64,000 nucleotides of DNA, taken from contig NZ_FOFI01000004.1 in assembly GCF_900110605.1 (NCBI RefSeq), positions 1-64,000 on the forward strand, written 5' to 3'. The position numbers and the translations under genes are program-made. This document shows, piece by piece, positions 33,030 to 54,186 of the stretch (position 1 is its first letter; each line of letters begins with the position of its first letter). This DNA comes from Epilithonimonas lactis. Lineage in GTDB: Bacteria > Bacteroidota > Bacteroidia > Flavobacteriales > Weeksellaceae. The notes below the pieces were generated by a model, which was not told the DNA's origin, did no database searches, and saw only the letters and a list, made by a program, of their open reading frames with translations.

Positions 33030-33031
33030 AA

Positions 33032-33823: not shown

Positions 33824-33849
33824 AAAATCACAAAATGAAGTGTATGTTT

Positions 33850-33905
33850 AGTGATTCCTCTGTGATTGCGTGTTTATAGCGATCACAGAGGAATCACTTT
33901 TTTTC
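33850..33905 (+). terminator. Very strong terminator
   Basis: 17-bp perfect arms (33850-33866 and 33882-33898, each containing the TGATTCCTCTGTGAT word or its complement) enclose a 15-nt loop and run into at least seven Ts. It ends the integrase operon just before the replication module. Confidence 0.9.
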
Positions 33906-33935
33906 TTTGCACCATAACAATCAAAAACAATAGTT

Positions 33936-34313: not shown

Positions 34314-35539
34314 GCCAAAAAATTCCCTATATCCGAGTTGGAACCACCTATTATAAGGTAATAGAAAAGCCATTAATTTCGGGCGATAAAACTTCTGTTT
34401 TGGTTCGCTGGAATCGAGAAACAATCGTGAGCGATCACGGAAAAACGTATGTTTCAACTGTGCCAAAATTTGACGGTTTCTGTTGCATTCCGGAGCATTT
34501 AAATTATCAACAAATCGTTCAAGGTTTCTATAATATTTACAATGAAATTCCATTTGCTCCTTCATCAGAAAAGGAAGATTTGAAATCTAAAATTCCATTT
34601 TCCCTAAATTTTGTAGCGCACATTTTCGGTGAACAACTGGAAATGGGTCTGGATTATTTAAAAATTCTCTTACAATTTCCTACGCAAATTCTACCTATTT
34701 TATGTTTGGTGTCCAAAGAAAGAGCAACCGGGAAGTCAACTTTTATAAAGTGGCTGAGAGAGATTTTCGGATTGAATATGACTTACATTAAAGGCGATTC
34801 GTTCGGAAGTCAATTCAATTCCGATTGGGCAGCAATGTTGTTGGTAGCAATCGACGAAGTTTTCTTTGATAAAAAGGAAATTACAGAAAGGCTCAAATAT
34901 CTATCTACAACCAATAAAGATAAGTTGGAAGCCAAAGGAAAAGATAGAGAGGAAATCGATTTTTTCGCCAAGTTTATTCTTTGTTCCAATAACGAAGAGA
35001 ATTTTATTCAAATCGATGAAAATGAAATTCGATTTTGGATTCTGAAAATCAATCCGATCAAAACGGAAAACACCGAGTTTTTGAATAACCTCATTTCCGA
35101 AATCCCCTATTTTCTTCAGTTTTTAATTGAAAGACCATTTTCAACGGAAAGGAAGACAAGAATGTGGTTTTCAGCCGATGAAATCAGAACGAAAGCACTT
35201 CAAAAATTGGTTTTCAAAAACAACAATAAACTGGAATCTAAGATCATTGAATTGCTGTACGAGTTTTTTGAAAGCAACAATGATGAAGAGATAAATGTCG
35301 TTCCGCAAGACTTGCTGAATATGATGAATAGGATGTTTCGCCCAACTTACTGGACAAGAAATGATATCCGAAATCTTTTAAAGGAAACTTGGAAATTGAA
35401 TCCACAAAATAATGGTTTGACTTACATCAGATACGACCTTGATTTTGCAGGAATATTTTACCAAAACAATTCAGTTGGTCGCTATTTCACCATAAAAAAG
35501 GATTTTATTCTTAATAAACGTGTTGAAATGTTGAATTGA
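34310..35539 (+). CDS. Primase-helicase (VirE/DUF5906-like) ATPase
   Basis: 409 aa. A P-loop variant SKERATGKST (about 134-143), a Walker B-like LLVAIDEVFF (about 175-185) and a sensor region FILCSNNEENF mark an SF3-like helicase of mobile elements. The paired TOPRIM primase lies at 35761 across an iteron-like repeat region. Together they probably prime and unwind element DNA after excision or transfer. Confidence 0.82.
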   Translation: MSQKIPYIRVGTTYYKVIEKPLISGDKTSVLVRWNRETIVSDHGKTYVSTVPKFDGFCCIPEHLNYQQIVQGFYNIYNEIPFAPSSEKEDLKSKIPFSLNFVAHIFGEQLEMGLDYLKILLQFPTQILPILCLVSKERATGKSTFIKWLREIFGLNMTYIKGDSFGSQFNSDWAAMLLVAIDEVFFDKKEITERLKYLSTTNKDKLEAKGKDREEIDFFAKFILCSNNEENFIQIDENEIRFWILKINPIKTENTEFLNNLISEIPYFLQFLIERPFSTERKTRMWFSADEIRTKALQKLVFKNNNKLESKIIELLYEFFESNNDEEINVVPQDLLNMMNRMFRPTYWTRNDIRNLLKETWKLNPQNNGLTYIRYDLDFAGIFYQNNSVGRYFTIKKDFILNKRVEMLN

Positions 35540-35571
35540 TTGATAATGAATAGAAAATCAGACACTTTAAA

Positions 35572-35722
35572 CTCAACAAAATCCTCAACAAACTTTTAAA
35601 CTTCACTTTTTGTTGAATGTTTGTTGAGGGTAAAACCACTAGTTTGTTGAATTGTTGAGCATTTATTGAGGGTTTAAACATTACTTAATCAATACGTTAC
35701 AGGGTTTTCTCAACAATTCAAC
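35572..35722. repeat. TCAACAA/TTGTTGA iteron-like cluster
   Basis: At least seven copies of TCAACAA or its complement TTGTTGA occur in ~150 bp between the helicase and primase genes. One inverted pair has 11-bp arms (CCTCAACAAAC, 35583-35593, with GTTTGTTGAGG further right). Clustered short repeats beside replication genes suggest a replication origin or initiator/operator site. Not a CRISPR: units are 7 bp and irregularly spaced. Confidence 0.55.
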
Positions 35723-35760
35723 AGAAAATATCTCACTCAAAACACGGAAAATTTACAACT

Positions 35761-36639
35761 ATGAATTGCAAACAATTTAATACAATCCCGTTGGAAGAAG
35801 TCCTCCTTTCTATCGGACACCTTCCCACGAAACAAAATGAAAAAGAAGCTTGGTATCTCAACCCCTTTGCCAGCGAAGCCCAAGCATCTTTTAAAATCAA
35901 TAAAAGTCTAAACAAGTGGTACTTATTTTCAGAAGGAATCGGTGGAAATAACGTTGACCTATTGAAAAAATATCTGAATAAGACTACTAGTGAAGTTTTA
36001 ATTTGGGCAGAAGATCAGAACTTTTCTTCTTTTCAAAATCAAAATATTCCTGATCAGAAGTTCGAAAACCAAAGTAAAAATTATGAGATACTTGACGTGA
36101 ATGAAGTCCGGCATCCTGCACTTATGGAATATTTAAGAGAAAGAAAAGTTGGAAATCAAACTCAGTTCTTACACGAAATTCATTACCAAATGAATGATAA
36201 AAACTATTTCGGAATTGGTTTCAAGAACGATTCTGGCGGTTGTGAAATTCGCAATAAATATTCAAAAATTTGTTTGGGCAAAAAAGATGTTTCTTCCATA
36301 AAAAACGGATCAGAATCGCTTCGGATTTTCGAGGGCTTTTTCGATTTTCTTTCCTTTAAAAATGTAGAGAATTTTTTAGAAAAAGAACCTGTCGATTATC
36401 TCATTTTGAATTCCGTTTCGATGATTTCAAAAATTAAAAAATCACTCGATAATTATGAAAATATTGAGCTTTATTTTGACAATGACGAAGCCGGAAATCG
36501 TGCGGTTGAAATGATTAAAAATGAAAACAAAAACGCAGAAGATTGTCGGATTTTATATTCAAATTTTAAAGACTTAAATGATTGGATAATTCACAAAAAT
36601 CCATCACCTGAAAGGCAAGTGAAGCAAAGGCGAAGGTGA
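35761..36639 (+). CDS. TOPRIM primase-like protein
   Basis: 292 aa. The N-terminal part resembles the CHC2-derived domain of phage/plasmid primases without clear Cys ligands (IPLEEVLLSIGHLPTKQNEKEAWYLNPF). The TOPRIM motif follows, with E in LRIFEGFFDFLSF (about 189) and DxD in LYFDNDEAGNRA (about 238). It likely synthesises primers for the element, working with the upstream helicase. Confidence 0.85.
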   Translation: MNCKQFNTIPLEEVLLSIGHLPTKQNEKEAWYLNPFASEAQASFKINKSLNKWYLFSEGIGGNNVDLLKKYLNKTTSEVLIWAEDQNFSSFQNQNIPDQKFENQSKNYEILDVNEVRHPALMEYLRERKVGNQTQFLHEIHYQMNDKNYFGIGFKNDSGGCEIRNKYSKICLGKKDVSSIKNGSESLRIFEGFFDFLSFKNVENFLEKEPVDYLILNSVSMISKIKKSLDNYENIELYFDNDEAGNRAVEMIKNENKNAEDCRILYSNFKDLNDWIIHKNPSPERQVKQRRR

Positions 36640-36786
36640 GTAAAATAAATACAGGTAAAATATGGTGTTATGTTAGTGCAAAAAGTACCCAAAGTTTACA
36701 ATAAGCGTAGCCGCTGATTGCAAAATTGGGATTTTTGATTTCTTCCTATCGTCAGAAATGTTTTTAAATGCAATAAAATTTACACA

Positions 36787-37236
36787 ATGGAAAAAGACTT
36801 TTTACAAGAATTCATACAGCAAGCCACCAAGGAAAATGAAGCAAAAATTGCTCAGGAAAAAAGAAAAAAATATTTCCAGGAATTAGGCAGAAAAGGTGGT
36901 TTTAAAACTAAAGAAAATAAAAAATTGGACAAAGTTATTTCAATCAGAATGACCAATTCCGAATATGAAACCCTCGTTCAAAAACAAGATAAATATCCGC
37001 TAAAATTGTCCACTTATATCCGGAATGTTTTGTTCGAAAAAGAACTCAAAATTAATGAGTTTCAAACAGATGAAGTATTACTCAAATATGGAAATCATTT
37101 CAAAAAAATAAGCAATCTTTTGCGAAATCGGGAATGGAATGTTTTTGAAAATAAGAAGGAAATTTTGTTAAGAATTGAAAATCTAATCGAATTGATTCAT
37201 CAATATTTATATTCAAAAATGCAGAAAGATGAATAA
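36787..37236 (+). CDS. MobC-like relaxosome accessory protein
   Basis: 149 aa. An N-terminal charged helix contains ELGRKGGFKTKENKK, then VISIRMTNSEYETL...STYIRNVLFEKEL resembles the ribbon-helix-helix region of MobC/BfmA-like proteins that assist the relaxase at oriT. It overlaps the relaxase by 8 bases. The oriT is expected in or near the 147-bp gap upstream (36640-36786), but no clear nic motif is seen. Confidence 0.75.
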   Translation: MEKDFLQEFIQQATKENEAKIAQEKRKKYFQELGRKGGFKTKENKKLDKVISIRMTNSEYETLVQKQDKYPLKLSTYIRNVLFEKELKINEFQTDEVLLKYGNHFKKISNLLRNREWNVFENKKEILLRIENLIELIHQYLYSKMQKDE

Positions 37237-38377
37237 TTCTGCAACCACAAGAGCAATCACAAAAATTGCTTTGGAATACAATGCAAACGATAAAGGAACA
37301 GCAGAAATGGTGGCTTCGAATTATCTTCTAAGCGATACTTCTGAAGGTCAGTTTAACGAAATGAAAACCGTAGCTGAAAGAAATACCAAAGTGAAGAAAT
37401 GGGCATTGACAGGCTACATTTCTCAACCGGACGAAATTGGAAGAAAATTGAAGGATGATGAATTCGCAGAAATCGCCACCAAAGCTTTAGAAAAAATTGG
37501 TGTGACAAATAAAAATCAGTACCGATTGGATATTCACAACAGCACGAAACATAAGCATATTCACTTTGTCGTCAATAGAATTGATATTTCGGGAAAGTGC
37601 ACTCTGAAAGCACACGATATCGGAAAGAGATTTGGTGAAGCTGTCAGAGAAGTCTGCAAAGAAAAAGGACTGTTGACCGATGTTGAAATTGGAATTCAGA
37701 AAAAAGCTGAGATGCTGAAAAGCTTGACCGAAGCCATTAGGTCAGAAGATAATTTTGATGATCTCATCTCAGAAATGAAGAAAAAAGGTTACGAAATTCA
37801 ATTGTCTTCAAATGTCAAAGATGGGATTTCGGGAATGCGAATTGTGATGGAAAAAGACAAAAATTTTCAAACCGAAAGGATCTATAAAGCTGGTTACAAG
37901 TTATCTGAGATCTCTAATCAATTGAAAATTTCTGAAATAAAATCTGTATTTGAAATAAAAAAAGCGATCAGGGCAGCGCAAAAACACGCTGACAATGTAA
38001 AGGAATTTCGGGAAAATCTACAACAAAAGGGATTTTCAGTAAAGATCCAATACAAAGGAGAATTTAAAGCCGGTCAAAAAAATGAAATTCGAGATTTCTG
38101 GATAAATAAAATTGATGATCGTCAAGAGAAAAACGGATTCTTTTTTCGGAAAAATGTCGGATTCTCTCTGTCGGCAATAGATACTGATCTTGATACTACG
38201 ATAAAATCATTGAATCAAAATAGTGTTATAAATGATGCAAGTAATCATCTGAGATCAGAAACAAATGAAAGCTTAATAGAAATTGCAGGCGGTTTACTAG
38301 GTGACTTTCTTAATCCAACCTATGTTTCTCAGCACGAAGATGAACTCTGGAAAAAGAAGCGAAAATTAAGACGATAA
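37229..38377 (+). CDS. Relaxase/mobilization nuclease
   Basis: 382 aa. The three-His metal motif of MobA/VirD2-type relaxases is seen in HNSTKHKHIHFVVNRID (about 102-118), followed by a helical domain. It nicks the element at oriT and pilots one strand into a conjugation channel supplied in trans. Coupling to the MobC-like gene is typical. Confidence 0.87.
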   Translation: MNNSATTRAITKIALEYNANDKGTAEMVASNYLLSDTSEGQFNEMKTVAERNTKVKKWALTGYISQPDEIGRKLKDDEFAEIATKALEKIGVTNKNQYRLDIHNSTKHKHIHFVVNRIDISGKCTLKAHDIGKRFGEAVREVCKEKGLLTDVEIGIQKKAEMLKSLTEAIRSEDNFDDLISEMKKKGYEIQLSSNVKDGISGMRIVMEKDKNFQTERIYKAGYKLSEISNQLKISEIKSVFEIKKAIRAAQKHADNVKEFRENLQQKGFSVKIQYKGEFKAGQKNEIRDFWINKIDDRQEKNGFFFRKNVGFSLSAIDTDLDTTIKSLNQNSVINDASNHLRSETNESLIEIAGGLLGDFLNPTYVSQHEDELWKKKRKLRR

Positions 38378-38400
38378 TCAGAAATTTAAAAAAAATCAAT

Positions 38401-38967
38401 ATGGAAAATGAAAATCAAGAATCTAAAAGTAACGGGATGGAGCTTTTGGAAAATGTTGTAAAATCAAATGAAAGAAATATTGCTTCAAATTTGGAGAATA
38501 AGGAATCTAATGCTGAAGTTAAAGCCAATATTAAAGATTTGGTATTCGCAATTGGTCAACTGCAATTAGACTTTGAAGCCGTAAAAGAAATTCCCAACAA
38601 AATAGAAATAGTCCTTTCACAAGAAACCAGCGATTTTTATGAGGATTTTTATAAGAAAATGAAAATGAAGGAGAAGTTTACATGGAGTGGATTAGGAGTT
38701 TTTATCTTAGGGATTTTCACTTTTATGCTTTCCATCACTTTCGCCACCAATTGGTACAAAGAAAGCATCAAAGCCAAAAGTGAACTACGCCAAGATATTT
38801 TAAAAGAAATTGCTAATGAAGGAAAAAATATCTACGATGAAAAAGAGATTAAAATCTTGAACGAAAATACTCAAGTAATGCAATTGTGGATCAAGAATAA
38901 TCCTAAAAAAGCAGAAGATTTCCTGAGGTTTAAAGATGGGTATGAAGCGAGTATGAAATCAAAATAA
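38401..38967 (+). CDS. Coiled-coil protein with one TM helix
   Basis: 188 aa. An N-terminal acidic helical region, a TM helix at about 98-118 (GLGVFILGIFTFMLSITFA) and a C-terminal helical region. It follows the relaxase by 23 bases, as the third gene of the mob operon in related Bacteroidota elements. Probably helps link the relaxosome to the membrane, but that is inference. Confidence 0.65.
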   Translation: MENENQESKSNGMELLENVVKSNERNIASNLENKESNAEVKANIKDLVFAIGQLQLDFEAVKEIPNKIEIVLSQETSDFYEDFYKKMKMKEKFTWSGLGVFILGIFTFMLSITFATNWYKESIKAKSELRQDILKEIANEGKNIYDEKEIKILNENTQVMQLWIKNNPKKAEDFLRFKDGYEASMKSK

Positions 38968-39053
38968 ATTAATAAAAAGTGGATAACGAATCCAAATAAA
39001 TCTCAAGAGATATAGTTCTAAAAATGCTGATTCTTTCAAAAAAAGCAAAATAG

Positions 39054-39100
39054 TGAGCCGATTAAAAACGCTAATCGGCTCATATTTTTTAGTATATTTG
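39054..39100 (+). promoter_or_regulatory. Inverted-repeat operator and -7 element of Fic gene
   Basis: TGAGCCGATTA (39054-39064) is an exact inverted match to TAATCGGCTCA (39072-39082). A perfect -7 element TATATTTG lies at 39093-39100. GAGCC and CAGCTC words recur at 39100 and 39121, just before the ATG. The repeat covers the -33 region, so a repressor site is likely; the T6 after it could also let it terminate the mob operon. Confidence 0.6.
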
Positions 39101-39126
39101 AGCCAAATAAATTATTTAATCAGCTC

Positions 39127-40230
39127 ATGGAATATATTTGGCAATCAGAAGATTTCCCGACATTCGTATTTAATAAGCCAGAAATCGTTCCGCTGATTCA
39201 ACAGTTTGCGCACGATTTGGGCGAAATATCTGGAATTGTGATGGGCTTTTCTGAAGAAAATAAACGAGATTTATTTTCTGAAATTATGCTTTCTGAAGCA
39301 CTAAAAACATCAGAAATTGAAGGCGAATATTTTAGTCGGGAAGATGTGATGTCCTCACTGAAAGCCAATTTAGGCATCAAAGATTACCATCAAAGCAACC
39401 GGAACAAAAAGGCAAATGCCATTGCGCATTTGATGATAGAAGTTCAAAACAGCTATCACAAGCCAATTTCCGAAAAAATACTTTTGGACTGGCACCATAT
39501 CTTGATGGATAATGAAAAAGGAATTAATGCAGGACAATTTCGAACAGGAATAGAGCCTATGCAAGTGGTCTCTGGTAAATTTGGTGATTTCGTCATCCAT
39601 TATGAAGCACCACCTTCTGAGGATTTGCCACTGATGGTACCGCAATTTTTGAAATGGTATAATGACTTTGAAATGAACGACATTGGGAAAATCGGAGAAG
39701 GTGTCGTGCTTTCGGCATTAGCGCATCTATATTTTGAGACGCTGCATCCTTTTGAAGATGGAAATGGGAGAATAGGACGTGCTTTAGCGGAAAAAGCTTT
39801 GTCCGAGAAACTTGAAACACCTGTTTTTATTAGCATTTCAAAATCTATTGAAAAGGACAAAAACCGTTACTACGAAGAATTAAAGCGAGCTCAGCGAAAT
39901 CTTGACGTAAACAGCTGGATGCTTTATTTTTGCTCAATATTGCAGGATGCTTTACTCGATTCTAAAAATCAAGCACTTTTTACTTTGAAGAAAACTTTGT
40001 TTTTCGATCAATTTAAAAGCCAACTTAATGAAAGAGAATTGAAGGCTATTCAGAAAATGACAGAAATGGGAGAAAATTCTTTTGTTGGCGGAATGAATGC
40101 GAAAAAGTATATGTCTATCAACAAAATTTCTAAAGCTACTGCAACCAGAGATTTACAACATCTTTCCGAAATTGGAGTTTTTCTAAAATCGGGTGGTGGC
40201 CGTTCCATTTCTTATCAATTGAATTTGTAA
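39127..40230 (+). CDS. Fic family protein (DUF4172/Fic/winged helix)
   Basis: 367 aa. A DUF4172-like N-terminal region contains the inhibitory motif T61-SEIEG (TxxxEG, E65). The Fic domain has the full HPFEDGNGRIGR motif (H207). A C-terminal winged HTH follows (about 305-365, YMSINKISKATATRDLQHLSEIGVF). It probably AMPylates a protein target and may repress its own promoter through the inverted repeat at 39054-39082. Together with the gene at 36, this window holds two Fic proteins of different architecture. Confidence 0.9.
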   Translation: MEYIWQSEDFPTFVFNKPEIVPLIQQFAHDLGEISGIVMGFSEENKRDLFSEIMLSEALKTSEIEGEYFSREDVMSSLKANLGIKDYHQSNRNKKANAIAHLMIEVQNSYHKPISEKILLDWHHILMDNEKGINAGQFRTGIEPMQVVSGKFGDFVIHYEAPPSEDLPLMVPQFLKWYNDFEMNDIGKIGEGVVLSALAHLYFETLHPFEDGNGRIGRALAEKALSEKLETPVFISISKSIEKDKNRYYEELKRAQRNLDVNSWMLYFCSILQDALLDSKNQALFTLKKTLFFDQFKSQLNERELKAIQKMTEMGENSFVGGMNAKKYMSINKISKATATRDLQHLSEIGVFLKSGGGRSISYQLNL

Positions 40231-40417: not shown

Positions 40418-40575
40418 GAAAGAACAGACATTGGATGTTCAACACTTTAGTGCTAAAGTTTTGGTGAAAAAAGAAACCCACGCCATTGTATATACCAGAA
40501 ATTATTTAGTTTCCAGTATTTAGTGAGTGTTCAAAACCTCACCCTACGGGTTTACAAGCACCCTCATTTTTTTAG
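40418..40575 (-). ncRNA. Candidate guide RNA for dead Cas12f-like protein
   Basis: Directly after the Cas12f-like stop codon the minus strand can fold into successive hairpins: ACCC-GTA-GGGT (40551-40541); GTGAG/CTCAC (40542-40523); a 10-bp stem ATACTGGAAA (40519-40510) / TTTCTGGTAT (40501-40492) containing two G-U pairs that are only possible in a minus-strand transcript; and CTTTAGCACTAAAG (40458-40445). TGTTGAAC follows, after which ~19 bases from 40436 downward could be the guide. The TTGAACA word also occurs in the second hairpin. Scaffold length and position, 3' of the effector gene on its strand, fit omegaRNA/Cas12f guide RNAs. The guide boundary is a guess. Confidence 0.5.
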
Positions 40576-41670
40576 CTATCCGATAATCAATTCGATACCG
40601 GCTTTTTCTGCTTTGTATTTTATTTTGGTCTGCAATTCATAATAGCTCCAGTTGCGAAGTACAAACTCTTGTTCTTTTGCAATCCCTATTTTGTCTTCCT
40701 GATCTTTAAGAATGAGCGTTCCCGCCTGTTGCCGGATGCAGAAATCAATCAGCTGCCGACTGTAAAGATGAAGATGATGACTCACAAAACGGTTTTCCAG
40801 ATTCTCAGTTTTGTGCAGTGCCTTCTGTTTCCGTTTGGTTCCGTGTCCGGAACGGGAATAAGCGACTCCGGCTCGAATCCTTTTATTACTGGCCTGGATC
40901 GCCAGTCTGCGGTAGAGGAATTCCTCTTTCGAGCCAATATTCATTCGCGCATTGTTGGCTTTTACCACGATCGGATGTTCCAGAGACAAAGAAGCTTCAG
41001 CAATGATTTCAGGTTTTAAAAGGTGGTCTTCTTTTTCAAATTCAAATACGGCAAGCCAATAGATTTTTCCACCTTTCAGTTGGATTTGCGATGTGCAAAC
41101 CTTGATCTCTTTTCTTAATAGGCGTTCCATTATCAACCGCTTATCTGAGAAGTCTTTTCCTAAATACGTTTTAACAGGAATCGCGAACATATTGAAGCAA
41201 AATGCTTTCTTTTCGACATCATATCTCATTTTAGTAGTGCATTTAACAGGAAGCGGAATTGGAATATCTTTCTTAAAGTTTCGCAACGATTTTGATCCCT
41301 GCCAGTAATCTACTTTGTTTTTGGAAAAGGTTGATTGAATCGTATTGTTCAGACTTCCCAAAATGTCAGTAGGAATCTCTCCTTTGAAGCGATCAAAAAC
41401 CATACGTGCAGTTGTGTGTGTTTTTGATCTTGTAAATATTCCCATTTCATCTTTCTTTACATCCGCTAGTTTGTATTGGACATCTTCTGTGAGGTAAAAG
41501 AAATCTTTGATCATTTCCTGAACATATAGATGAGAAACAATTAAATTAGCTGCCCGGAAACAGCGGTTTTGATACCGATAGAGTTTTTCCCACATCTCTT
41601 TTTGTTCATTTGCAGGAAGATCGATCAGCAGCTGAATTCTTCGGGTCAATGTCATCGTGGATTTTTCCAT
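40576..41670 (-). CDS. Nuclease-dead Cas12f/TnpB-like protein
   Basis: 364 aa from ATG 41670 (MEKSTMTLTRR). A start at 41772 would overlap the sigma gene by 100 bp; 41670 gives a TGA-A-ATG junction. The C-terminal half follows the TnpB/Cas12f layout, with a RuvC-II-like GTLILKDQ and the family ending NWSYYELQTKIKYKAEKAGIELII. Catalytic residues are gone: the RuvC-I region reads ASLSLEHPIVV where GxDxG is expected, the RuvC-II acid is K322, and the protein stops at G364 before the zinc ribbon and RuvC-III Asp. So RNA-guided binding without cleavage is predicted. The N-terminal half has the basic/aromatic helical character of the REC/WED part. It is co-transcribed with an ECF sigma factor. Confidence 0.75.
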   Translation of the reverse strand: MEKSTMTLTRRIQLLIDLPANEQKEMWEKLYRYQNRCFRAANLIVSHLYVQEMIKDFFYLTEDVQYKLADVKKDEMGIFTRSKTHTTARMVFDRFKGEIPTDILGSLNNTIQSTFSKNKVDYWQGSKSLRNFKKDIPIPLPVKCTTKMRYDVEKKAFCFNMFAIPVKTYLGKDFSDKRLIMERLLRKEIKVCTSQIQLKGGKIYWLAVFEFEKEDHLLKPEIIAEASLSLEHPIVVKANNARMNIGSKEEFLYRRLAIQASNKRIRAGVAYSRSGHGTKRKQKALHKTENLENRFVSHHLHLYSRQLIDFCIRQQAGTLILKDQEDKIGIAKEQEFVLRNWSYYELQTKIKYKAEKAGIELIIG

Positions 41671-41671
41671 T

Positions 41672-42493
41672 TCAAAGAGGTATTTCAGAAGTGTTTTGAT
41701 TTTGTAAATGTTGATATGCATACAGAAATTCCCGATGGACTTCTTTTTCCGGTAGTTTGAGCTCTTGTGCAATCAGCGCAAACGAAGATTTGTGTTCAAA
41801 CCGTCTTTTGATGATCTCGAGCTGCTGGCTACTGAGTTGTTCTGACTTCTCTTTTTTAAGTGAAGGTTTTTCCTCCGGATGCTCAAACGAGGTGACTTTA
41901 AGAATTTTCCGAAGCTCATCTATGGCTTTGCTTACCTCCGTGCTGATTCCTGTCACGCTGCTTCCCATAGCCTCCGCGATGGGTTTGTACTGGAATCCAT
42001 ATTCAAGGCAAAGTTCTATCAGGTGTTTTCTTTTGGAATTCAGAACGGGTAACACCTTTGTGATTTCATCGAATTTATTTTGATCGGATTCCTGGCTATG
42101 TAAATACTCTTTATCTTTCAAGGGATCGTAACCTGCAAGATATTCCTGATAATTCTCAAAACTGTCAAGAGATGCCATAAGTCGGGTGAATTTATTTCTG
42201 GGCGCAGTTACATAGGCGATGCAATCCCTCTTCATCACAAAGCGTAGAAAGCCTGTAATGTGATCAGGCGATTCAATGGTGTCGCGGTGCAGCCACAGTT
42301 TGAGGAAGGTATCCTGAACAATCGTGTCCACTACGAAATCATCTTTCAACACCTGCCCTCCGACCCAGAAAAGAAGTCTTTTGTAGCGCAGATGAATGTG
42401 TTCCAGAGCGATCGGGTTGCCCTTTTTCAGCAGTTCATATAACTGAAGATTGGTCAACTTTCGGGGCAAAGAGTTTGTTCTTTTCATAAGCAA
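41672..42493 (-). CDS. ECF sigma factor linked to dead Cas12f
   Basis: 273 aa. Sigma-2 lies at about 23-95 (ALEHIHLRYKRLLFWVGGQ...DTIVQDTFLKLWLHRD...ITGFLRFVMKRDCIAY). Sigma-4 lies at about 140-197 (LPVLNSKRKHLIELCLEYGFQYKPIAEAMGSSVTGISTEVSKAIDELRKIL). A further ~75-residue C-terminal region holds a third HTH-like unit (LSSQQLEIIKRRFEHKSSFALIAQELKLPEKEVHREF), which typical ECF factors of ~190 aa lack. No anti-sigma gene is adjacent. One base separates it from the Cas12f-like gene. A dead RNA-guided protein plus sigma factor predicts guide-directed recruitment of RNA polymerase. Confidence 0.82.
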   Translation of the reverse strand: MLMKRTNSLPRKLTNLQLYELLKKGNPIALEHIHLRYKRLLFWVGGQVLKDDFVVDTIVQDTFLKLWLHRDTIESPDHITGFLRFVMKRDCIAYVTAPRNKFTRLMASLDSFENYQEYLAGYDPLKDKEYLHSQESDQNKFDEITKVLPVLNSKRKHLIELCLEYGFQYKPIAEAMGSSVTGISTEVSKAIDELRKILKVTSFEHPEEKPSLKKEKSEQLSSQQLEIIKRRFEHKSSFALIAQELKLPEKEVHREFLYAYQHLQNQNTSEIPL

Positions 42494-42503
42494 TCTGTAT
42501 TAG

Positions 42504-42511
42504 CAAAATTA
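42504..42511 (-). promoter_or_regulatory. -7 element of sigma/dCas12f operon
   Basis: TAATTTTG on the minus strand is a perfect TAnnTTTG match 10 bases upstream of the sigma ATG at 42493. The leader would be only a few bases, so translation may start near-leaderless or at the second Met (42487). Confidence 0.5.
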
Positions 42512-42626
42512 TTGCTGGAAGGAACTGCTTATATCTGTTAAGAAGAATTCTACTTACATCTGAACCTTATTTCTTTTAGTTTAGCACAAAAGAAAAAGCG
42601 TGGAACTCAACTTACCGACTAGTGGT

Positions 42627-42715
42627 ACTGGCATACCAAGCAACGATAAGCGAGCCCACGCCGAAGTCGTGGGCACATTTACTTATCAACTCGTTGCTTT
42701 TTGAAAAGTGCCAGT
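42627..42715. ncRNA. Four-tier hairpin, possible structured RNA
   Basis: Nested perfect stems: ACTGGCA (42627-42633)/TGCCAGT (42709-42715); AAGCAACGA (42638-42646)/TCGTTGCTT (42691-42699); TAAG (42647-42650)/CTTA (42682-42685); GCCCACG (42654-42660)/CGTGGGC (42668-42674). All pairs are Watson-Crick, so the strand is undecided. It is the main content of the 375-bp gap between the divergent sigma and HTH genes. On the plus strand TAGTTTAG (42575-42582) is a near -7 element and a T7 run ends at 42756. It could be a second RNA of the Cas12f-like system or an unrelated RNA. Confidence 0.5.
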
Positions 42716-42814
42716 TTTCCAATCGAGAATCTAAGCAATAGCTTCTATGTTTTTTTGAACTATCGCAAAATTACATCCTTGTAACTTGTCTTACAAATAT
42801 AATAAAAATAATTT

Positions 42815-42842
42815 AATTACGGTCGTTCGACCGTAATTTTTT
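42815..42842. promoter_or_regulatory. Palindromic operator or terminator before HTH gene
   Basis: AATTACGGTCG and CGACCGTAATT form a perfect 11-bp inverted repeat with a two-base centre, then a run of six Ts. It is centred ~42 bp before the HTH start. As an operator it would be a dimer site for the HTH protein; as a terminator it would end a plus-strand RNA from the 42.6-kb hairpin. Confidence 0.6.
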
Positions 42843-42867: not shown

Positions 42868-43101
42868 ATGATTGACATTAACGAGAAAGTTTGCTCTTAT
42901 ATAACTATAAACTGGCTAATTCCGTGGCTTAAAGAAAATAAGTCGCAGAACTCGTTTGCTAAAAATCACGATGTTGAAGAAAGTACTATACGAAAAATAA
43001 AAAGTGATAATACTTATAGAATTCCAGTTGAAACACTTTACAGGATTTGCAAAGCGAGAAAAATAACTCTTGAAGAATTTTTTAAACTTATAAATGAATA
43101 A
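42868..43101 (+). CDS. Small HTH (XRE-like) regulator
   Basis: 77 aa. A lambda-repressor-like fold is suggested by SQNSFAKNHDVEESTIRKIKSDNTYRIPVETLYRICKARKITLEEFF. It lies between the palindrome at 42815-42838 and the type I R-M genes, as control proteins of restriction systems often do. It probably regulates itself, the hsd genes, or both. Confidence 0.8.
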   Translation: MIDINEKVCSYITINWLIPWLKENKSQNSFAKNHDVEESTIRKIKSDNTYRIPVETLYRICKARKITLEEFFKLINE

Positions 43102-43314: not shown

Positions 43315-44880
43315 ATGGCAACGAAAACAGCTGCAAAAACAAAAAGCACAGAAGAAATCCTTTGGGATTCCGCAAATAAATTACGTGGTTCTGTAGAACC
43401 TTCAGAATACAAGCATGTTGTACTGAGTTTAATCTTCTTAAAATTTGCGAGTGATAAATTCATCAAACGTAGAGAAGAATTGATTGCAGAAGGTAAACAA
43501 GCCTTCTTAGATATTCCCGAATTTTATCAGGCGGAAAACGTGTTTTATCTTCCTGAAGAATCCCGTTGGACTTTCATTATGGAAAATGCCAAGCAGGAAA
43601 ATATCACATTGATAGTAGATTCCGCCCTGAAAACCATTGAACGTACCAACAAATCTCTGGAAGGTGCGTTACCCGATAATTATTTTTCCCGTCTTGGACT
43701 GGATCAATCTAAATTCTCTGCTTTGTTGGATACCATTAACAATATTGATACCCTGAAAGATGAAGCCCACGATATTGTAGGACGTGTGTACGAATATTTC
43801 CTGAGCAAATTTGCCATTGCTGAAGGGAAAGGAAAAGGAGAATTTTATACCCCGAAATCGATTGTTAATCTGATTGCAGAAATGATAGAGCCTTACAAAG
43901 GGAAAATCTATGATCCTTCCTGTGGTTCAGGTGGTATGTTTGTACAGTCGCTGAAGTTTATTGAGAAGCATAAAGGAAACAAAAAAGATATTTCTATCTA
44001 CGGTCAGGAGCTTACCAATACCACCTACAAATTGGCTAAGATGAACCTCGCCATCCGTGGAATTTCTTCTAATCTGGGGAACAAAGCGGCAGATACTTTT
44101 GGCGACGACCAGCACAAAGATCTGAAAGCCGACTACATCATGGCAAACCCGCCTTTTAATTTAAAAGACTGGCGTGCAGAAAACGAACTGACTACCGACC
44201 CAAGATGGGCAGGTTATGAAGTACCCCCAAAATCCAATGCCAACTATGCGTGGATTCTGAATATGATTTCTAAACTCTCTCAGAATGGCGTTGCCGGATT
44301 TATCTTGGCCAACGGTGCTTTGAGTGGCGGTGGCGAAGAATATAAAATAAGGAAACAGATTATCGAAAATGATTTGGTGGAAGCCGTTGTGATTTTACCT
44401 CAAAGTATGTTTTATTCTACCGATATTTCGGTAACACTCTGGATTCTGAACCGCAATAAAAATGAGCGAACTTTTGAAGTGAACGATGGTGTAAAAAATT
44501 ACCGTAACCGAAAAGGCGAAGTGCTGTTTATGGATCTGCGACAGAAAGGAGAACCATTTGAAAAGAAATTTATTCAGTTTGGCGAAGAAGAGATTACGGC
44601 TATTGCTACCCATTATCATAACTGGCAACAGCAAGACTGGAAAGTAACCTATCAGGATATTCCTGAATATTCTTACAGTGCGACTCTGGAAGACATCCGC
44701 AATAAAGATTATTCTTTAGTACCCAGTAAATATATTGAATTCGTCAACCGTGATGAAAGTCTGGATTATAACGAGCAGATGCAAAGTTTGCAGACAGATT
44801 TGAAAGATTTATTTGAACAGGAAAACCAATTGAAAAATGAAGTTTATAATGTTTTTAAAACTTTAGGTTATGAGTTATAG
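43315..44880 (+). CDS. hsdM: Type I restriction-modification methyltransferase subunit
   Basis: 521 aa. The HsdM N-terminal helical domain (about 8-140) precedes the N6-adenine methylase domain, with SAM motif I YDPSCGSGGMFVQS (about 200-215) and catalytic NPPF in IMANPPFNLKDW (about 280). It methylates adenine in the site chosen by HsdS. It overlaps hsdS by 11 bases. Confidence 0.96.
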   Translation: MATKTAAKTKSTEEILWDSANKLRGSVEPSEYKHVVLSLIFLKFASDKFIKRREELIAEGKQAFLDIPEFYQAENVFYLPEESRWTFIMENAKQENITLIVDSALKTIERTNKSLEGALPDNYFSRLGLDQSKFSALLDTINNIDTLKDEAHDIVGRVYEYFLSKFAIAEGKGKGEFYTPKSIVNLIAEMIEPYKGKIYDPSCGSGGMFVQSLKFIEKHKGNKKDISIYGQELTNTTYKLAKMNLAIRGISSNLGNKAADTFGDDQHKDLKADYIMANPPFNLKDWRAENELTTDPRWAGYEVPPKSNANYAWILNMISKLSQNGVAGFILANGALSGGGEEYKIRKQIIENDLVEAVVILPQSMFYSTDISVTLWILNRNKNERTFEVNDGVKNYRNRKGEVLFMDLRQKGEPFEKKFIQFGEEEITAIATHYHNWQQQDWKVTYQDIPEYSYSATLEDIRNKDYSLVPSKYIEFVNRDESLDYNEQMQSLQTDLKDLFEQENQLKNEVYNVFKTLGYEL

Positions 44881-46093
44881 AAAGTTGGGCGATCTTGTCA
44901 AATTTATCAGTAACAAAAATACTGATGGAAACGCAACAATATTATTTGGGATTAATATTGATAAATTTTTTATGCCATCTGTGGCAAATATTATTGGTGT
45001 TGATTTAAAAAAATATAAAGTTGTAAAAAAATATCAATTTGCTTGCAACCGAATGCACGTTGGTCGTGATGAAAGACTGCCTATTTCGATGTCAACTTTT
45101 GATTATGATTTTATAGTTTCTCCAGCTTATGATGTTTTTGAAGTAATTTCTTCTAATGTTTTGCCAGAATATCTGATGTTATGGTTTAGACGTAAAGAAT
45201 TTGACAGACAATGTTGGTTCTACACCGATGCGGATGTAAGAGGAGGACTTCATTTGGATGCATTAAAGTCTATTGAAATAAAAGTTCCTTCCATCGAAGA
45301 ACAGCGACAAATTGTTGCGCAATACCAAAGCATAGCTAACAAAATAAAAGTCAACGAGCAGATTTGCGAAAAACTGGAAGCGACTGCGCAGGCCTTGTAT
45401 AAAAATTGGTTTGTAGATTTTGAGTTTCCAAATGAAGAGGGAAAACCGTATAAATCTTCTGGTGGACAAATGGTTTGGAATGAAGAGCTTGGGAAGGAGA
45501 TTCCGGAGGGATGGGAAGTTGGAACTATTGGAGATTTAGTTGATACTCAATATGGATTTACTGATAGTGCACATCCATCTAAAGGTACTGCAAAGTTTTT
45601 AAGAATCACTGATATAGTGGGAAATTATATAAAATGGGATGATGTTCCTTATTGTAATATACTAACAAAAGATATTTATAAATATTCTGTTGAATTTGGA
45701 GATTTCTTGATTAGCCGAACTGGTGCAAATGTTGGGTATGGAAAAATGATTGGAAAACATACGCCCTTGGCTGTCTTTGCGTCATTTCTTGTTAGACTTA
45801 AACCAAAATCCACTGTCTATATTTCATATCTATATTGTTTAATTATAAGCAAATTCTATAAAGATTTTGTTTTATCAAATTCAGAAGGCTCTGCACAACC
45901 ACAAGCAAATGCAAACATTCTTACAAAAATGGATTGCTTAGTTGCTACCAGTGAAGAGTATGAAAAATTCAATGAAGAAATTTTACCAGTAGTACATTTT
46001 AAAGAAATTTTAGATATCCAAACCCAAAAACTCACACAACTGCAAAGTTTGTTGTTGTCGCGGTTGGCGGTTGGAGAGGAAGTGAGTGCGTAA
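44870..46093 (+). CDS. hsdS: Type I restriction specificity subunit
   Basis: 407 aa. Two target-recognition domains (about 1-140 and 205-350), each followed by a conserved helical spacer: PSIEEQRQIVAQYQSIANKIKVNEQICEKLEATAQALYKNWF after the first and a similar HFKEILDIQTQKLTQLQSLLLSRL at the end. It recognises the bipartite DNA site. The first TRD is short and rather divergent, but the frame is intact. Confidence 0.94.
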   Translation: MSYRKLGDLVKFISNKNTDGNATILFGINIDKFFMPSVANIIGVDLKKYKVVKKYQFACNRMHVGRDERLPISMSTFDYDFIVSPAYDVFEVISSNVLPEYLMLWFRRKEFDRQCWFYTDADVRGGLHLDALKSIEIKVPSIEEQRQIVAQYQSIANKIKVNEQICEKLEATAQALYKNWFVDFEFPNEEGKPYKSSGGQMVWNEELGKEIPEGWEVGTIGDLVDTQYGFTDSAHPSKGTAKFLRITDIVGNYIKWDDVPYCNILTKDIYKYSVEFGDFLISRTGANVGYGKMIGKHTPLAVFASFLVRLKPKSTVYISYLYCLIISKFYKDFVLSNSEGSAQPQANANILTKMDCLVATSEEYEKFNEEILPVVHFKEILDIQTQKLTQLQSLLLSRLAVGEEVSA

Positions 46094-46130
46094 ATAAAAA
46101 ACAAAAACTGATAACTATAAAAACTAAAAT

Positions 46131-48566
46131 ATGATCAAGAAAATTAATATTAATAATCTTGGATTATTTAAAAATTTTCAATGGGATGTTGCAATTCGAA
46201 GTAATCCTGGCAATAATATTATCCCATTGAATAAAGAAAACATTCTTTATGGAAGAAATTATTCCGGAAAAACTACTCTGTCAAGAATAATTAGAGCTTT
46301 AGAAACCAAAGAACTATCGCCAAAATACCTTAATCCAGAATTTGAAATTATACTAACTGATAATTCAACGATTGATCAATCTAATTTTCATGAGAATACA
46401 TTAAACGTAAGATGTTTTAATGAGGACTTTATAAAGGAAAATTTAAGTTTTATTATTAATCCTGATTCAGAGATTAAACCATTCGCTATTCTTGGAGAAA
46501 ATAGCGAAATAGAAGCACAAATAGAAGCTATTAAAAATGAATTGGGCGACAGTAATGAAGATTCTAAAACTATAAAATACAAAGAATTAGCTGATTTGTC
46601 TGAATTGGCTAGCACGCATAATACAGATTTGATAGGGTTAAAAAGAACGTTAGACACTCAATTGACAAATAAAGCAACTGGAAATACCGATAGTATAAAA
46701 CAACAGCATTTAAAGTTTGGTGACATCAATTATAATAAAACGAAACTACTACACGAAATTAATGAAGTTCTTTTACCAGCATTTACATCTATTGATGCAA
46801 ATAAAGAAACTACAAATCTTGAGCAGATTAATGAAATAGAAAAAATAAGTGTTGCACACTCTGTCAATTTTATAAATGCTTATGAAAGTGAGTTACCAGA
46901 AATAAAAATAGCTTTAGAACAAACTTTATTAGATAATAATAAAATTGCGGAACTATTAGCAAATTCTAGTATAAATGAGTGGGTTAAAAAAGGATATGAT
47001 ATTCATTCAGAAGATAGAAATTGTACTTGTAAGTTTTGTGGTAATCTTATATCAGAATCTCGTTGGACAGAATTAGATAATCATTTTGATGAAGAGTCAA
47101 AAAAGCTTGAAGAAACTTTAAACGTTTTTAAAGAAAAAATTGCAAGAGAAATAGATTCTCTTAGTAATATTAAATTAGCAAATAAAGAGCTCTTCTATAT
47201 TAGTTTTCATAATGAACTTAATGAATGTTCAGAATCATTTAATACTCAAATTTTAAATTATAAAGCAGATTTAGAGTTCTTACTTTCTAAAATTGATGAA
47301 CGTTTACTTTCAATTCATATTCCAATTATATATGACTACACTACAACTTTTTCGCAAACCGATTTTTCAGCTACAATAGAACTTTATGATGATATTAAGA
47401 ATCGCAACAACACATATTCAACTGAATTATCAGGAAAAATTTCTGAAGCAAAAAAAGAGCTTAGACTCTTAGAGGTTAAACGTTTTGTAAATACTATTCA
47501 ATATAGCACCCAATTACAAAATATTTCAAGTAAAGAAACAGAATATACAAGTAAAGAAACAGAAAGAAAAGAAGTAGATGATTATATAAAATTAAAAGAG
47601 AAAGAAATTATTGAATTATCACGTCAATTGAATAATGAAGAAGAAGGAGCAAGAAAAGTAAATGATTATCTACAAAATTATTTTGGTCATCAAAACTTGG
47701 AATTACAAGCAATTGAAGAAGAAGTAGATTCGGATAAAAAGATTAGGTTTAACATAGTACGGGATGGTAATATTGCCTATCACTTGAGCGAAGGGGAATG
47801 TAGCATTATTTCATTTTGCTACTTTATGGCTAAATTAGATGATATTCATACTGCTGGTGAAAAACCCATAATATTGATTGATGATCCTATATCAAGTTTA
47901 GACTCAAATCATATTTTTTACGTTTATAGCCTTATAAATAATGAACTATTTGTAAAAAAACGTTTTGAACAAATTTTTATTTCTACACATAATTTGGAAT
48001 TTTTTAAATATTTAAAAATGTTGAAATTTTCAAAAGTTGATAGGCAGACACAAAGCGAGTATTTTTTAGTCAATAGATTTGAAAACAAATGCAATATTAG
48101 TTTAATGCCTTCGTATTTAAAAGATTATGTAACTGAATTCAATTATTTATTTCATCAAATATATAAGTGTGCTAAACACGATACAGTTTCAGATCTAAAT
48201 CTTGATGTATTCTATAATTTTGGTAATAATTTGAGAAAATTTTTGGAGGTATATTTATTCTACAAATATCCAAGTAAGCTAAATAGTTCGGATGGTAATT
48301 CGAGCAATAATAAAAGATTAATTAAATTTTTTGGTGAAAACCAAACTGTTTTGTTAATTGAAAGAATAACAAATGAATTCTCGCACTTAGAAGAAAACTC
48401 TGGTAGAAGTACGCAACCAATAGATGTGCCTGAAATGAAAACAGTTGCGGAATTTATTTTATCATCTATTAGACTAAAAGATGAAGAACAATATAACGCT
48501 CTTTTGGAAAGTATAGGTATAGCTCAAGTGATTGAACAAGTGACCGTAAATCCAAATTTAAATTAA
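46131..48566 (+). CDS. RloC/PrrC-like anticodon nuclease (AAA_13)
   Basis: 811 aa. An ABC-type ATPase with Walker A YGRNYSGKTTL (about 40-50) and Walker B ILIDDPISSLDSNH (about 578-592). Long coiled coils surround a CKFCGN zinc-hook-like motif near 303. In the C-terminal region R702, E706 and H752 (LRKFLE ... NEFSH) are placed like the Arg-Glu-His triad of PrrC. PrrC and RloC cleave tRNA anticodon loops and are usually held silent by the type I R-M complex; the location between hsdS and hsdR fits this. The triad assignment is by eye. Confidence 0.8.
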   Translation: MIKKININNLGLFKNFQWDVAIRSNPGNNIIPLNKENILYGRNYSGKTTLSRIIRALETKELSPKYLNPEFEIILTDNSTIDQSNFHENTLNVRCFNEDFIKENLSFIINPDSEIKPFAILGENSEIEAQIEAIKNELGDSNEDSKTIKYKELADLSELASTHNTDLIGLKRTLDTQLTNKATGNTDSIKQQHLKFGDINYNKTKLLHEINEVLLPAFTSIDANKETTNLEQINEIEKISVAHSVNFINAYESELPEIKIALEQTLLDNNKIAELLANSSINEWVKKGYDIHSEDRNCTCKFCGNLISESRWTELDNHFDEESKKLEETLNVFKEKIAREIDSLSNIKLANKELFYISFHNELNECSESFNTQILNYKADLEFLLSKIDERLLSIHIPIIYDYTTTFSQTDFSATIELYDDIKNRNNTYSTELSGKISEAKKELRLLEVKRFVNTIQYSTQLQNISSKETEYTSKETERKEVDDYIKLKEKEIIELSRQLNNEEEGARKVNDYLQNYFGHQNLELQAIEEEVDSDKKIRFNIVRDGNIAYHLSEGECSIISFCYFMAKLDDIHTAGEKPIILIDDPISSLDSNHIFYVYSLINNELFVKKRFEQIFISTHNLEFFKYLKMLKFSKVDRQTQSEYFLVNRFENKCNISLMPSYLKDYVTEFNYLFHQIYKCAKHDTVSDLNLDVFYNFGNNLRKFLEVYLFYKYPSKLNSSDGNSSNNKRLIKFFGENQTVLLIERITNEFSHLEENSGRSTQPIDVPEMKTVAEFILSSIRLKDEEQYNALLESIGIAQVIEQVTVNPNLN

Positions 48567-48593
48567 AGTAAGAATTAAAAGAAAGAACCAATA

Positions 48594-50303
48594 ATGGACG
48601 CATCAAAAAAAACAATCAATGATATTTTTAACGGTAACCGTATTTTAGAAATTCCCTTTTTTCAGAGAGCTTACGTTTGGGGTGAAAAACAATGGGAGAG
48701 ACTCTTAGAAGATATGGAAGCAGTTTCAAAAACGAACAAACCTTATTTTTTAGGTTCCGTAATTCTTAAACAACAACAAACCTCGTCAGCAAGTAAAGTT
48801 GGCGATATTCGAACTTTAATCGATGGTCAACAAAGGTTAACAACATTAAATATTTTTTTTAAAGTTCTGTGTTTGAAAAGTGGTAAAAATGCAATGTTTG
48901 ATAGGACTTTCAGATTAATGACCGATGAATTAGCCTTATCACACAGTCATAATGATATAGATAAGTTTACCGAAGTTTTGTCTGTAAATGATTTAGTTGA
49001 TTTGCCTGGAGAAGATAATATTACTAAATGCTATGGCTATTTTAAAAAGTCAATCAATGTTGACAATTTAGATTTTCAAAAAATACTTGCAAATATATTA
49101 TTTGTTGGAATCGACTTAGATCCAAATGAAGATGAACAACAAATATTTGACACAATTAATTCTTTGGGGGTAACATTGACAACTGCTGAGCTTTTGAAAA
49201 ATTATTTTTTCAACCGTGATATTAAACTTTACGAAAAGTACTGGAAAAACCTTTTTGAAAAGGATGAAGATGTAAAAAAATATTGGGATCGTGAGATAAC
49301 AGCTGGTCGAGTAAAGAGAACATTTATAGATTTATTTTTTGATGCATTCCTTCAAATCAAGATACAAGACAAAAGTTTCGGCGTAAAAACTGAAGATAAA
49401 ATTGCTTATGCTCGTGGCGAACATTTGTTTGAATCATATAAAGACTTCATTAAAAATTATCTCGATGGAAACAATAATATATTACTAAATGAAATTAAAG
49501 AGTATGCGGAAATATTTGCAAAAAACTTTGATTACGAAATCATTAATAGAGAGATATCTTCAAGCAACCATATAGAAAGATTAAATGCTATAATTTTCGG
49601 ACTAGATAACAGCACATTGATTTCGTATGTACTCTATGTTTTAAAAAATGTATCAAATACCGTAGAACAAGATGATATATTCCAGTTTCTAGAGTCATAC
49701 ATAATGAGAAGGATGGTTGCACATACAACGAATAAAAATTATAATCAGTTATTTACGGAAAGATTCATAGGTAACAAGATTCTGACTGTTCAAGGTATTA
49801 AAGAATTTATTGAAAAAAGTACAGATACATCTACGTTTATTCCGACAAATGAAGAAGTTTTAGAAGGCTTTAATAAATCAATTTTAATCAATAAACAGTC
49901 TGCGGGAATTTTATATTTATTAGAATCTAAGCATCGAAAATCTCATCTGCATTCTACAGCTTTGTTAGGAATTAACAAATACAGTTTAGAGCACTTAATG
50001 CCAAAAAACTGGTCTAAAAACTGGGGAATATTACCAACCCAAGATGATACCATCAAAAGGAGTCGAAAATTGTTGACACTCGGTAACTTAACGATCATCA
50101 CGCAGTCCTTAAATTCGTCAATACGGGATTCAGATTGGCAAACAAAAAAAGAAGGAAAAGGTGATAAAAAAGGATTAGAGGACTACGCGTCAGGTCTTGA
50201 AACGATGAACAAGTATTTAACACTAAGCATCTGGGATGAGAATGCTATAAATACTAGAGCAAAAGACCTTTATGAGATAGCAGAAAAAGTTTGGGCAATA
50301 TAG
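48594..50303 (+). CDS. DUF262/DUF1524 (GmrSD-like) protein
   Basis: 569 aa. The N-terminal DUF262 domain has IPFFQRAYVWGEKQW and the signature DGQQRLTTL (about 79-87). The C-terminal DUF1524 HNH-type domain has YSLEHLMPKNW (about 460) and LGNLTIITQSLNSSIRDSDW. This combination occurs in GmrSD-type modification-dependent enzymes, where DUF262 hydrolyses nucleotide and the HNH domain cuts modified phage DNA. Its insertion between rloC-like and hsdR genes suggests a composite defence locus. Confidence 0.85.
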   Translation: MDASKKTINDIFNGNRILEIPFFQRAYVWGEKQWERLLEDMEAVSKTNKPYFLGSVILKQQQTSSASKVGDIRTLIDGQQRLTTLNIFFKVLCLKSGKNAMFDRTFRLMTDELALSHSHNDIDKFTEVLSVNDLVDLPGEDNITKCYGYFKKSINVDNLDFQKILANILFVGIDLDPNEDEQQIFDTINSLGVTLTTAELLKNYFFNRDIKLYEKYWKNLFEKDEDVKKYWDREITAGRVKRTFIDLFFDAFLQIKIQDKSFGVKTEDKIAYARGEHLFESYKDFIKNYLDGNNNILLNEIKEYAEIFAKNFDYEIINREISSSNHIERLNAIIFGLDNSTLISYVLYVLKNVSNTVEQDDIFQFLESYIMRRMVAHTTNKNYNQLFTERFIGNKILTVQGIKEFIEKSTDTSTFIPTNEEVLEGFNKSILINKQSAGILYLLESKHRKSHLHSTALLGINKYSLEHLMPKNWSKNWGILPTQDDTIKRSRKLLTLGNLTIITQSLNSSIRDSDWQTKKEGKGDKKGLEDYASGLETMNKYLTLSIWDENAINTRAKDLYEIAEKVWAI

Positions 50304-50311
50304 ACAGAAAA

Positions 50312-53455: not shown

Positions 53456-53457
53456 AT

Positions 53458-54039: not shown

Positions 54040-54186
54040 AAGATTTATCAAAAATATGTATGGATTTCAGATGCAGAGAGAATAATTGGACAAAGTAGTT
54101 TTTGTCACTATGAATTAATAACTAGAGATAAATATCCTGAAAAAATTTGGATAGAACTTCATTTTGATAAGAGATTAAAAAAAGAA

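What the first reader, a model, noticed from the sequence alone, without database searches (positions are those of the whole stretch)
40418..42511. ECF sigma factor fused in operon with a nuclease-dead Cas12f/TnpB-like protein and guide-RNA-like tail
Seen: a 273-aa ECF sigma gene and a 364-aa TnpB/Cas12f-like gene one base apart on the minus strand, with a perfect -7 element in front and a structured non-coding stretch behind. The RuvC-I Asp and RuvC-II Glu positions are replaced, and the protein ends before the zinc ribbon/RuvC-III Asp. Known: Bacteroidota dCas12f-sigmaE pairs have recently been reported to drive RNA-guided transcription, and TnpB-derived dead proteins (TldR) act as RNA-guided repressors. 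Inferred: this is such a system, here carried on an integrative mobilizable island beside R-M genes, so it could reprogramme host or element transcription after transfer.
Basis: partly seen in the sequence, partly recalled or inferred. Interest (0 to 1): 0.96.

Follow-up and report, generated by a model that had tools for sequence, protein, structure and literature searches.

The report
RNA-guided sigma factor targeting susCD leaders
A likely mobile DNA island carries a sigma-factor gene paired with a Cas12f relative that lacks the nuclease residues, and a predicted guide RNA whose guide matches a conserved leader element in front of a nutrient-uptake (susCD) operon and in front of the pair itself, so the pair would likely switch those genes on by RNA guidance.

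Summary
The 364-aa protein matches the solved "Nuclease-deactivated Cas12f" (PDB 9n9c) over its whole length, and the sigma factor matches that complex's "RpoE" (9n9q). The pair is a member of the known dCas12f-sigmaE family. RuvC-I Asp is Ser227, RuvC-II Glu is Lys322, RuvC-III is absent.

New here is the target. Behind dCas12f lies a conserved RNA scaffold (40486-40565), then a guide nearly invariant in the family (CGGCGTGGGYTY plus T-run). It matches a structured leader element that is not in Rfam 15 and shows strong covariation (79 double-change cells against 23.5 in shuffles; 414 against 116 on 99 copies). The leader lies before the sigma gene and, elsewhere, before SusC-type operons. In this genome the guide can pair 18/18 (13 identical, 5 rU-dG) with the leader of a complete susCD operon on another contig, and 11 nt with its own leader. 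The leader is in 127 of 197 family genomes, dCas12f in 44, the scaffold in 45.

Proposed mechanism: the guided complex starts transcription inside the leader, beyond the 5' arm of a terminator-like hairpin, activating susCD and itself. Targeting is well supported by sequence; binding, activation and terminator bypass are inferred.

The parts
40576..41670 (-). nuclease-dead Cas12f homolog, 364 aa; RuvC-I Asp is Ser227, RuvC-II Glu is Lys322, no RuvC-III
   Evidence: PDB 9n9c over 1-364, E 1.6e-160; residues
41672..42487 (-). ECF-type sigma factor, 271 aa (ATG start; 273 aa from the TTG at 42493)
   Evidence: PDB 9n9q chain C RpoE, E 1.6e-75; Sigma70_r2/r4; start
40486..40565 (-). predicted guide-RNA scaffold, three stems
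   Evidence: Model R2 match 85 bits; covariation
40467..40485 (-). predicted guide TGGCGTGGGTTTCTTTTTT
   Evidence: Segment after the constant TATACAA; matches the leader site
42588..42742 (-). structured leader element (model R1): one long covarying hairpin
   Evidence: 171.6 bits; covariation; fold
42652..42663 (-). guide-matching site CGGCGTGGGCTC in the leader (3' arm of P3 and 5' arm of the terminator-like hairpin)
42588..42603 (-). 3' arm and T-rich tract of the terminator-like hairpin
42766..42797 (-). promoter: -33 TTTG (42794-42797), 20-nt spacer, -7 TAATTTTG (42766-42773)
   Evidence: both boxes found in 78 of 99 leaders
42817..42836 (.). perfect palindrome TTACGGTCGAACGACCGTAA, possible operator of the HTH protein
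   Evidence: palindromes longer than in shuffles across leaders
42868..43101 (+). divergent Cro/C1-type HTH protein, 77 aa
   Evidence: Pfam HTH_26

Best explanation
The operon encodes an ECF-type sigma factor and a Cas12f homolog without the RuvC catalytic residues, followed by a predicted guide RNA whose guide matches a conserved leader element in front of a susCD operon elsewhere in the genome and in front of the operon itself, and the complex is predicted to bind these leaders and start transcription there. Shown here: family membership by sequence, the conserved scaffold, the leader element and the guide-leader match. Inferred: the guide RNA loads onto dCas12f; the complex forms an R-loop on leader DNA; the sigma factor brings RNA polymerase; transcription starts downstream of the R-loop. 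The guide-matching site is also the 5' arm of a terminator-like hairpin, so transcripts that start beyond it would lack that arm and escape termination. The result would be activation of susCD and positive self-control of the operon.
For: Full-length match to solved dCas12f and match to its RpoE. Scaffold in 45 of 197 family genomes, including all 44 with a dCas12f match, with covariation. Own guide pairs 18 nt, wobble allowed, with the own susCD leader and 11 nt with the own operon leader, the best or joint best site in each locus. Over 41 same-genome guide-leader pairs the leader site is the unique best in its locus in 29, median run 14; shuffled guides reach the observed run in 63 of 2050 trials. 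Of 64 leader copies read away from the operon, 30 precede SusC-like genes; SusC and SusD domains confirmed in the own genome. A second array guide in genome G504 matches 15 nt exactly 183 nt behind a leader. The homolog L083 (another family of the order) has a guide identical at 16 of 17 positions to its own leader (counted by eye; exact run 10). Terminator-like hairpin conserved in 99 leaders.
Against: The leader occurs in 85 genomes without a dCas12f match, and its site is also constrained by RNA structure, so its conservation does not prove targeting. 12 of 41 guide-leader pairs are tied or beaten by another place in the locus. The second operon copy in this genome (contig 7) has lost the site in its own leader. 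13 of 50 operon loci showed no leader by pattern search; 12 of these 13 kept the usual guide directly behind dCas12f and the thirteenth (L019) as the third of three; the model later found remnants in two and a leader further upstream in one. Guides of some g189 genomes (AGGGGGATTT, CGCAAGGGCC) match no leader examined, and the register-shifted g189 guides fit their own leaders imperfectly. No second full match for the L087 guide in its genome. AlphaFold2 failed. No expression or binding data.
Confidence: 0.68

Rival explanations
1. RNA-guided repression: dCas12f sits on the leader as a roadblock, like TldR or CRISPR interference, and the sigma factor has another role.
For: The site lies downstream of a good promoter within the leader, where a bound protein would block elongation. 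Dead TnpB relatives (TldR) repress (PMC13418256, passages read).
Against: The operon encodes a sigma factor that matches the RpoE of the solved dCas12f complex and stays linked to dCas12f in the loci read.
Confidence: 0.17
2. The guide-like tail acts on leader RNA, as a small trans-acting RNA, rather than on DNA.
For: It resembles one arm of an RNA hairpin that has an alternative partner.
Against: The tail has the same sense as the leader RNA, so only about 7 nt (GCCCACG, 5' arm of P3) could pair on RNA, against 11-18 nt on DNA. The protein is a DNA-targeting Cas12f by homology.
Confidence: 0.05
3. The tail is not a guide but a conserved terminator or scaffold end, and the leader resemblance is shared descent or coincidence.
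For: The tail is nearly invariant in this family and ends in a T-run.
Against: Tandem scaffolds in one array carry different tails; distant homologs carry other tails; one array tail matches a second site 15 nt exactly; shuffled tails rarely match.
Confidence: 0.06
4. The pair is a decaying relic: the dead Cas12f no longer functions and the sigma factor acts alone.
For: Some loci have dCas12f frames with early stops (L039, L043, L045, L050).
Against: Length and sequence are strongly kept (364 aa in most loci; mean column identity 89% in 28 homologs), and scaffold and guide are kept with it.
Confidence: 0.04

Closest known systems
dCas12f-sigmaE RNA-guided transcription (PDB 9n9c, 9n9m, 9n9o, 9n9q; the 2025 preprints are recalled, not read)
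   Same: Full-length dCas12f homology, dead RuvC, linked RpoE, scaffold and guide behind the gene; susCD-type targets also recalled for the known system.
   Different: Here the guide is nearly fixed across a family and targets a widespread structured leader, including the operon's own; arrays of up to four guide RNAs occur in relatives; it sits on an integrase-relaxase island. I cannot say which of these features the original papers already report.
TldR, TnpB-like nuclease-dead repressors (PMC13418256, passages read)
   Same: Nuclease-dead TnpB/Cas12f-type protein with adjacent guide RNA, controlling host genes; short seeds and natural mismatches suffice there.
   Different: TldR represses and has no sigma partner.
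Cas12f1 nucleases (for example 9nzo, 8dzj, 7l48)
   Same: Homologous over the C-terminal two thirds.
   Different: Catalytic residues replaced, C-terminus truncated.
Attenuator or riboswitch-type leader RNAs
   Same: Long covarying hairpin and a mutually exclusive terminator-like hairpin in a 5' leader.
   Different: No Rfam family matches, no ligand known, and the shared arm matches the guide of an RNA-guided protein.

Membership tests
dCas12f-sigmaE | Full-length homology to a characterised dCas12f | tested here: met
   9n9c 1-364 against 1-365, E 1.6e-160
dCas12f-sigmaE | RuvC catalytic triad lost | tested here: met
   Ser227, Lys322, no RuvC-III. By pattern search over fetched loci, with overlapping loci counted more than once: Ser in 109 of 119 at RuvC-I with one Asp of unchecked origin, and Glu in none of 106 at RuvC-II
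dCas12f-sigmaE | Linked sigma factor of the partner type | tested here: met
   9n9q RpoE, E 1.6e-75; one base apart
dCas12f-sigmaE | Adjacent guide-RNA scaffold with guide | tested here: met
   by comparison only
dCas12f-sigmaE | Guide targets a site upstream of susCD-type genes (recalled feature) | tested here: met
   In silico:
dCas12f-sigmaE | RNA-guided transcription start without promoter motif | not testable with these tools
   Needs RNA mapping
TldR repressor | Dead TnpB acting without a sigma partner | tested here: not met
   Sigma gene in the operon
Cas12f/TnpB nuclease | Asp-Glu-Asp RuvC triad | tested here: not met
Transcription attenuator leader | Two mutually exclusive conserved hairpins, one followed by a U-tract | tested here: inconclusive
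   Both hairpins conserved; U-tract rich but interrupted; termination untested

The most novel reading that the evidence does not exclude
A mobile RNA-guided sigma factor with a family-wide, nearly fixed guide plugs into a pre-existing host regulon: it targets the shared arm of a widespread, undescribed leader RNA in front of susCD and related operons and in front of itself, and restarts transcription past the leader's terminator, an RNA-guided bypass of attenuation with positive feedback.
Probability: 0.4. Interest if true: 0.92.

Novelty: new variant of a known kind. Interest (0 to 1): 0.82.

Why it matters
RNA-guided transcription by a Cas12f relative and a sigma factor is, as far as I recall, known from very few systems. 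Here the sequence gives guide, target, self-target and many natural replicates, so the biology can be tested directly. It also points to an uncharacterised leader element present in about two thirds of the family genomes sampled (127 of 197), often in front of nutrient receptors. It further suggests why a mobile element would carry one nearly fixed guide: its target already lies in many hosts.

Tried and rejected
Active-nuclease reading: rejected, catalytic residues absent. Guide match at a single site: an 18-mer search of the own genome with up to 3 mismatches did not find the susCD site, which needs five wobbles; the site was found only through the leader, so the single match alone would not be significant genome-wide, and the argument rests on register and on many genomes. 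The L087 guide was searched in its own genome with up to 2 mismatches; the only full match was the guide RNA itself. Other guides of the Kaistella-like arrays (KRRGCGGTTTTC) were searched in four genomes; the three hits whose gene context I read lay in coding genes or gave no convincing target. Rfam gave no match for scaffold or leader at the gathering score, and only weak, far sub-threshold ones otherwise. Viral contigs and plasmids gave no relative. AlphaFold2 with 28 close homologs failed (pLDDT 38.6) and was not used. No paper on dCas12f-sigma showed up in the listings, and none on the leader; these are listings of capped searches, not proof of absence. The notebook count of 25 leaders with an exact seed was wrong; one search gives 21 of 46.

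Full report
Observation. The two genes are present as described. The sigma factor is 271 aa from the ATG at 42487, the start shared with most homologs. dCas12f is 364 aa; one base separates them. A second copy, 88% identical in dCas12f, lies on another contig of the same genome behind ORFs of matching number and length.

Identity. The protein matches the chain deposited as "Nuclease-deactivated Cas12f" (9n9c; also 9n9m, 9n9o, 9n9q) over 1-364 with E 1.6e-160, and Cas12f chains such as 9nzo with E 3.7e-39. The sigma factor matches 9n9q chain C "RpoE" with E 1.6e-75. RuvC-I Asp is Ser227, RuvC-II Glu is Lys322, and the chain ends before RuvC-III, as 9n9c does. The NCBIfam guided_TnpB profile matches below its cut-off (65 against 100 bits). 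It is therefore a member of the dCas12f-sigmaE family. The 2025 papers on that family are recalled; I could not open them.

Guide RNA. In loci from other genomes, the own copies and more distant homologs, a conserved RNA follows the dCas12f stop codon. Forty-eight distinct sequences show three stems with covariation: 17 double-change cells against 3.8 in shuffles, 0 of 500. Model R2 finds it in 45 of 197 family genomes: the 44 with a dCas12f match plus one orphan. After the constant end TATACAA comes a segment that is nearly invariant in the family, CGGCGTGGGYTY plus a T-run. Some genomes carry arrays of two to four scaffolds with different segments, and more distant homologs carry other segments. 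This is how a guide behaves.

The leader element. In 37 of 50 operon loci a conserved stretch lies upstream of the sigma gene. Thirty-four distinct sequences gave alignment A3 and model R1. The structure is one long hairpin of several helices. On A3, which was aligned without structure, 79 cells have a change on both sides against 23.5 (sd 4.4) in shuffles. On 99 leaders the figure is 414 against 116 (sd 9.6), with 98.6% of cells paired; that alignment was fitted to the model and leans towards it. The minimum-energy fold of the window's copy agrees in its main helices (z -3.7). Rfam 15 has no match.

The leader as target. R1 finds the leader in 127 of 197 family genomes, up to 8 matches per genome. 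Of the 30 loci returned with that search, 28 hold dCas12f. I read 64 leader copies not directly in front of sigma-dCas12f, chosen mainly from the listed rows and so not a random sample. Thirty precede SusC-like genes, 18 a roughly 190-aa family of unknown function, 7 thioredoxin-like genes, 3 single others (one of them a sigma gene at a contig end), and 6 had no long ORF in range. By position, five of those 6 lie 2.6-3.5 kb ahead of dCas12f genes. Pfam shows TonB plug domains in the three SusC-like proteins tested, a thioredoxin fold in the one tested of that group, and SusD in the own genome. In the own genome the three leaders are those of the two sigma-dCas12f copies and that of a complete susCD operon on contig 5.

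Guide against leader. The window's guide GGCGTGGGTTTCTTTTTT and the susCD leader GGCGTGGGTCTCTTCCCC are identical at 13 of 18 positions; the other five are guide T against C, that is rU-dG pairing (sequences, run of 18). The own leader gives 11 nt, a tie with one other place in that stretch. Over 41 guide-leader pairs from the same genomes, counted from the third guide base with wobble allowed, the leader site is the unique best in its locus in 29; the median run is 14; shuffled guides reach the observed value in 63 of 2050 trials. Ten of the 12 misses are guides with GGGCTTC or GGGTTTC that stop at 10 nt; the other two are in genome G558, with 7 nt. In genus g189, guides in two registers resemble the same leader segment; one gives runs of 9-10 nt in its own genomes, the other fits imperfectly, and further g189 guides fit no leader examined. 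A g189 guide with the variant GCGTGAGCTCAC (L241) comes from a genome where no leader was found. In genome G504 a second array guide matches 15 nt exactly, 183 nt behind the leader of a thioredoxin-like operon. An exact 8-nt seed in the own leader was found in 21 of 46 operon loci. The recalled 5'-G target-adjacent motif would be met if pairing starts at GCGTGGG; I could not test it.

Terminator-like hairpin. The guide-matching segment holds the 3' arm of helix P3 and can instead pair with CCACGCC about 60 nt downstream, followed by a T-rich tract. Over 99 leaders this alternative is 98.1% paired, with 18 compensatory cells against 4.0 in shuffles; its inner extension CTTA/TAAG is not kept. 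T is 71% in the 11 nt behind it against 32% further on. The site is thus shared by two exclusive structures. Any transcript that starts downstream of an R-loop at this site lacks the 5' arm. That is the basis for the proposed bypass, which is inference.

Context. Each of the 99 leaders has a TAnnTTTG element upstream, against 7 expected after shuffling; 78 have TTTG plus TAnnTTTG with a 19-23-nt spacer. Palindromes further upstream are longer than in shuffles (mean arm 7.1 against 4.8). Divergent HTH genes lie in both own-genome loci tested. The island carries integrase, DUF5906, Toprim, NikA-like, relaxase, Fic, type I R-M and GmrSD genes. A homolog of at least one of five mobility-type island genes lies within 6 kb in 15 of 47 loci.

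Reading. The leader is wider than dCas12f (127 against 44 of 197 genomes, 42 shared; Fisher p 1.9e-7; the operon's own leader contributes to this overlap). The simplest account is that the mobile sigma-dCas12f pair carries one nearly fixed guide for a leader that many hosts already have, often in front of nutrient receptors, and that it also controls itself. Binding, sigma recruitment and activation are untested. TldR work reports that a 6-nt seed can suffice for a related dead TnpB and that natural mismatches are tolerated (PMC13418256, passages read), so the pairing lengths seen here are adequate in principle.

Noticed in passing
window 31788-40230 and L003 895-9445: Two related integrase-relaxase islands in one genome, with ORFs of matching order and length, each followed by a sigma-dCas12f copy.
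   Followed up: partly
window 43315-55701: Type I restriction-modification genes with an AAA_13 protein, a GmrSD-type restriction protein and an AAA_5 ATPase inserted among or behind them.
   Followed up: partly
L201, L199, L233, L019, L222-L224: Arrays of two to four tandem guide scaffolds with different guides behind one dCas12f; targets of most are unknown.
   Followed up: partly
L144, L149, L293 and 15 similar loci: A family of roughly 190-aa proteins repeatedly found behind the leader element; no Pfam match for the two tested.
   Followed up: partly
L275 oriented position 857 (genome G504): A second array guide matches 15 nt exactly, 183 nt behind the leader of a thioredoxin-like operon.
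   Followed up: yes
G458:C62:2111-2177 (L235): An orphan guide scaffold with guide CGGAGTGGGCTCTTG in a genome where no dCas12f match was found.
   Followed up: no
L039, L043, L045, L050: dCas12f frames with early stops in some relatives.
   Followed up: no
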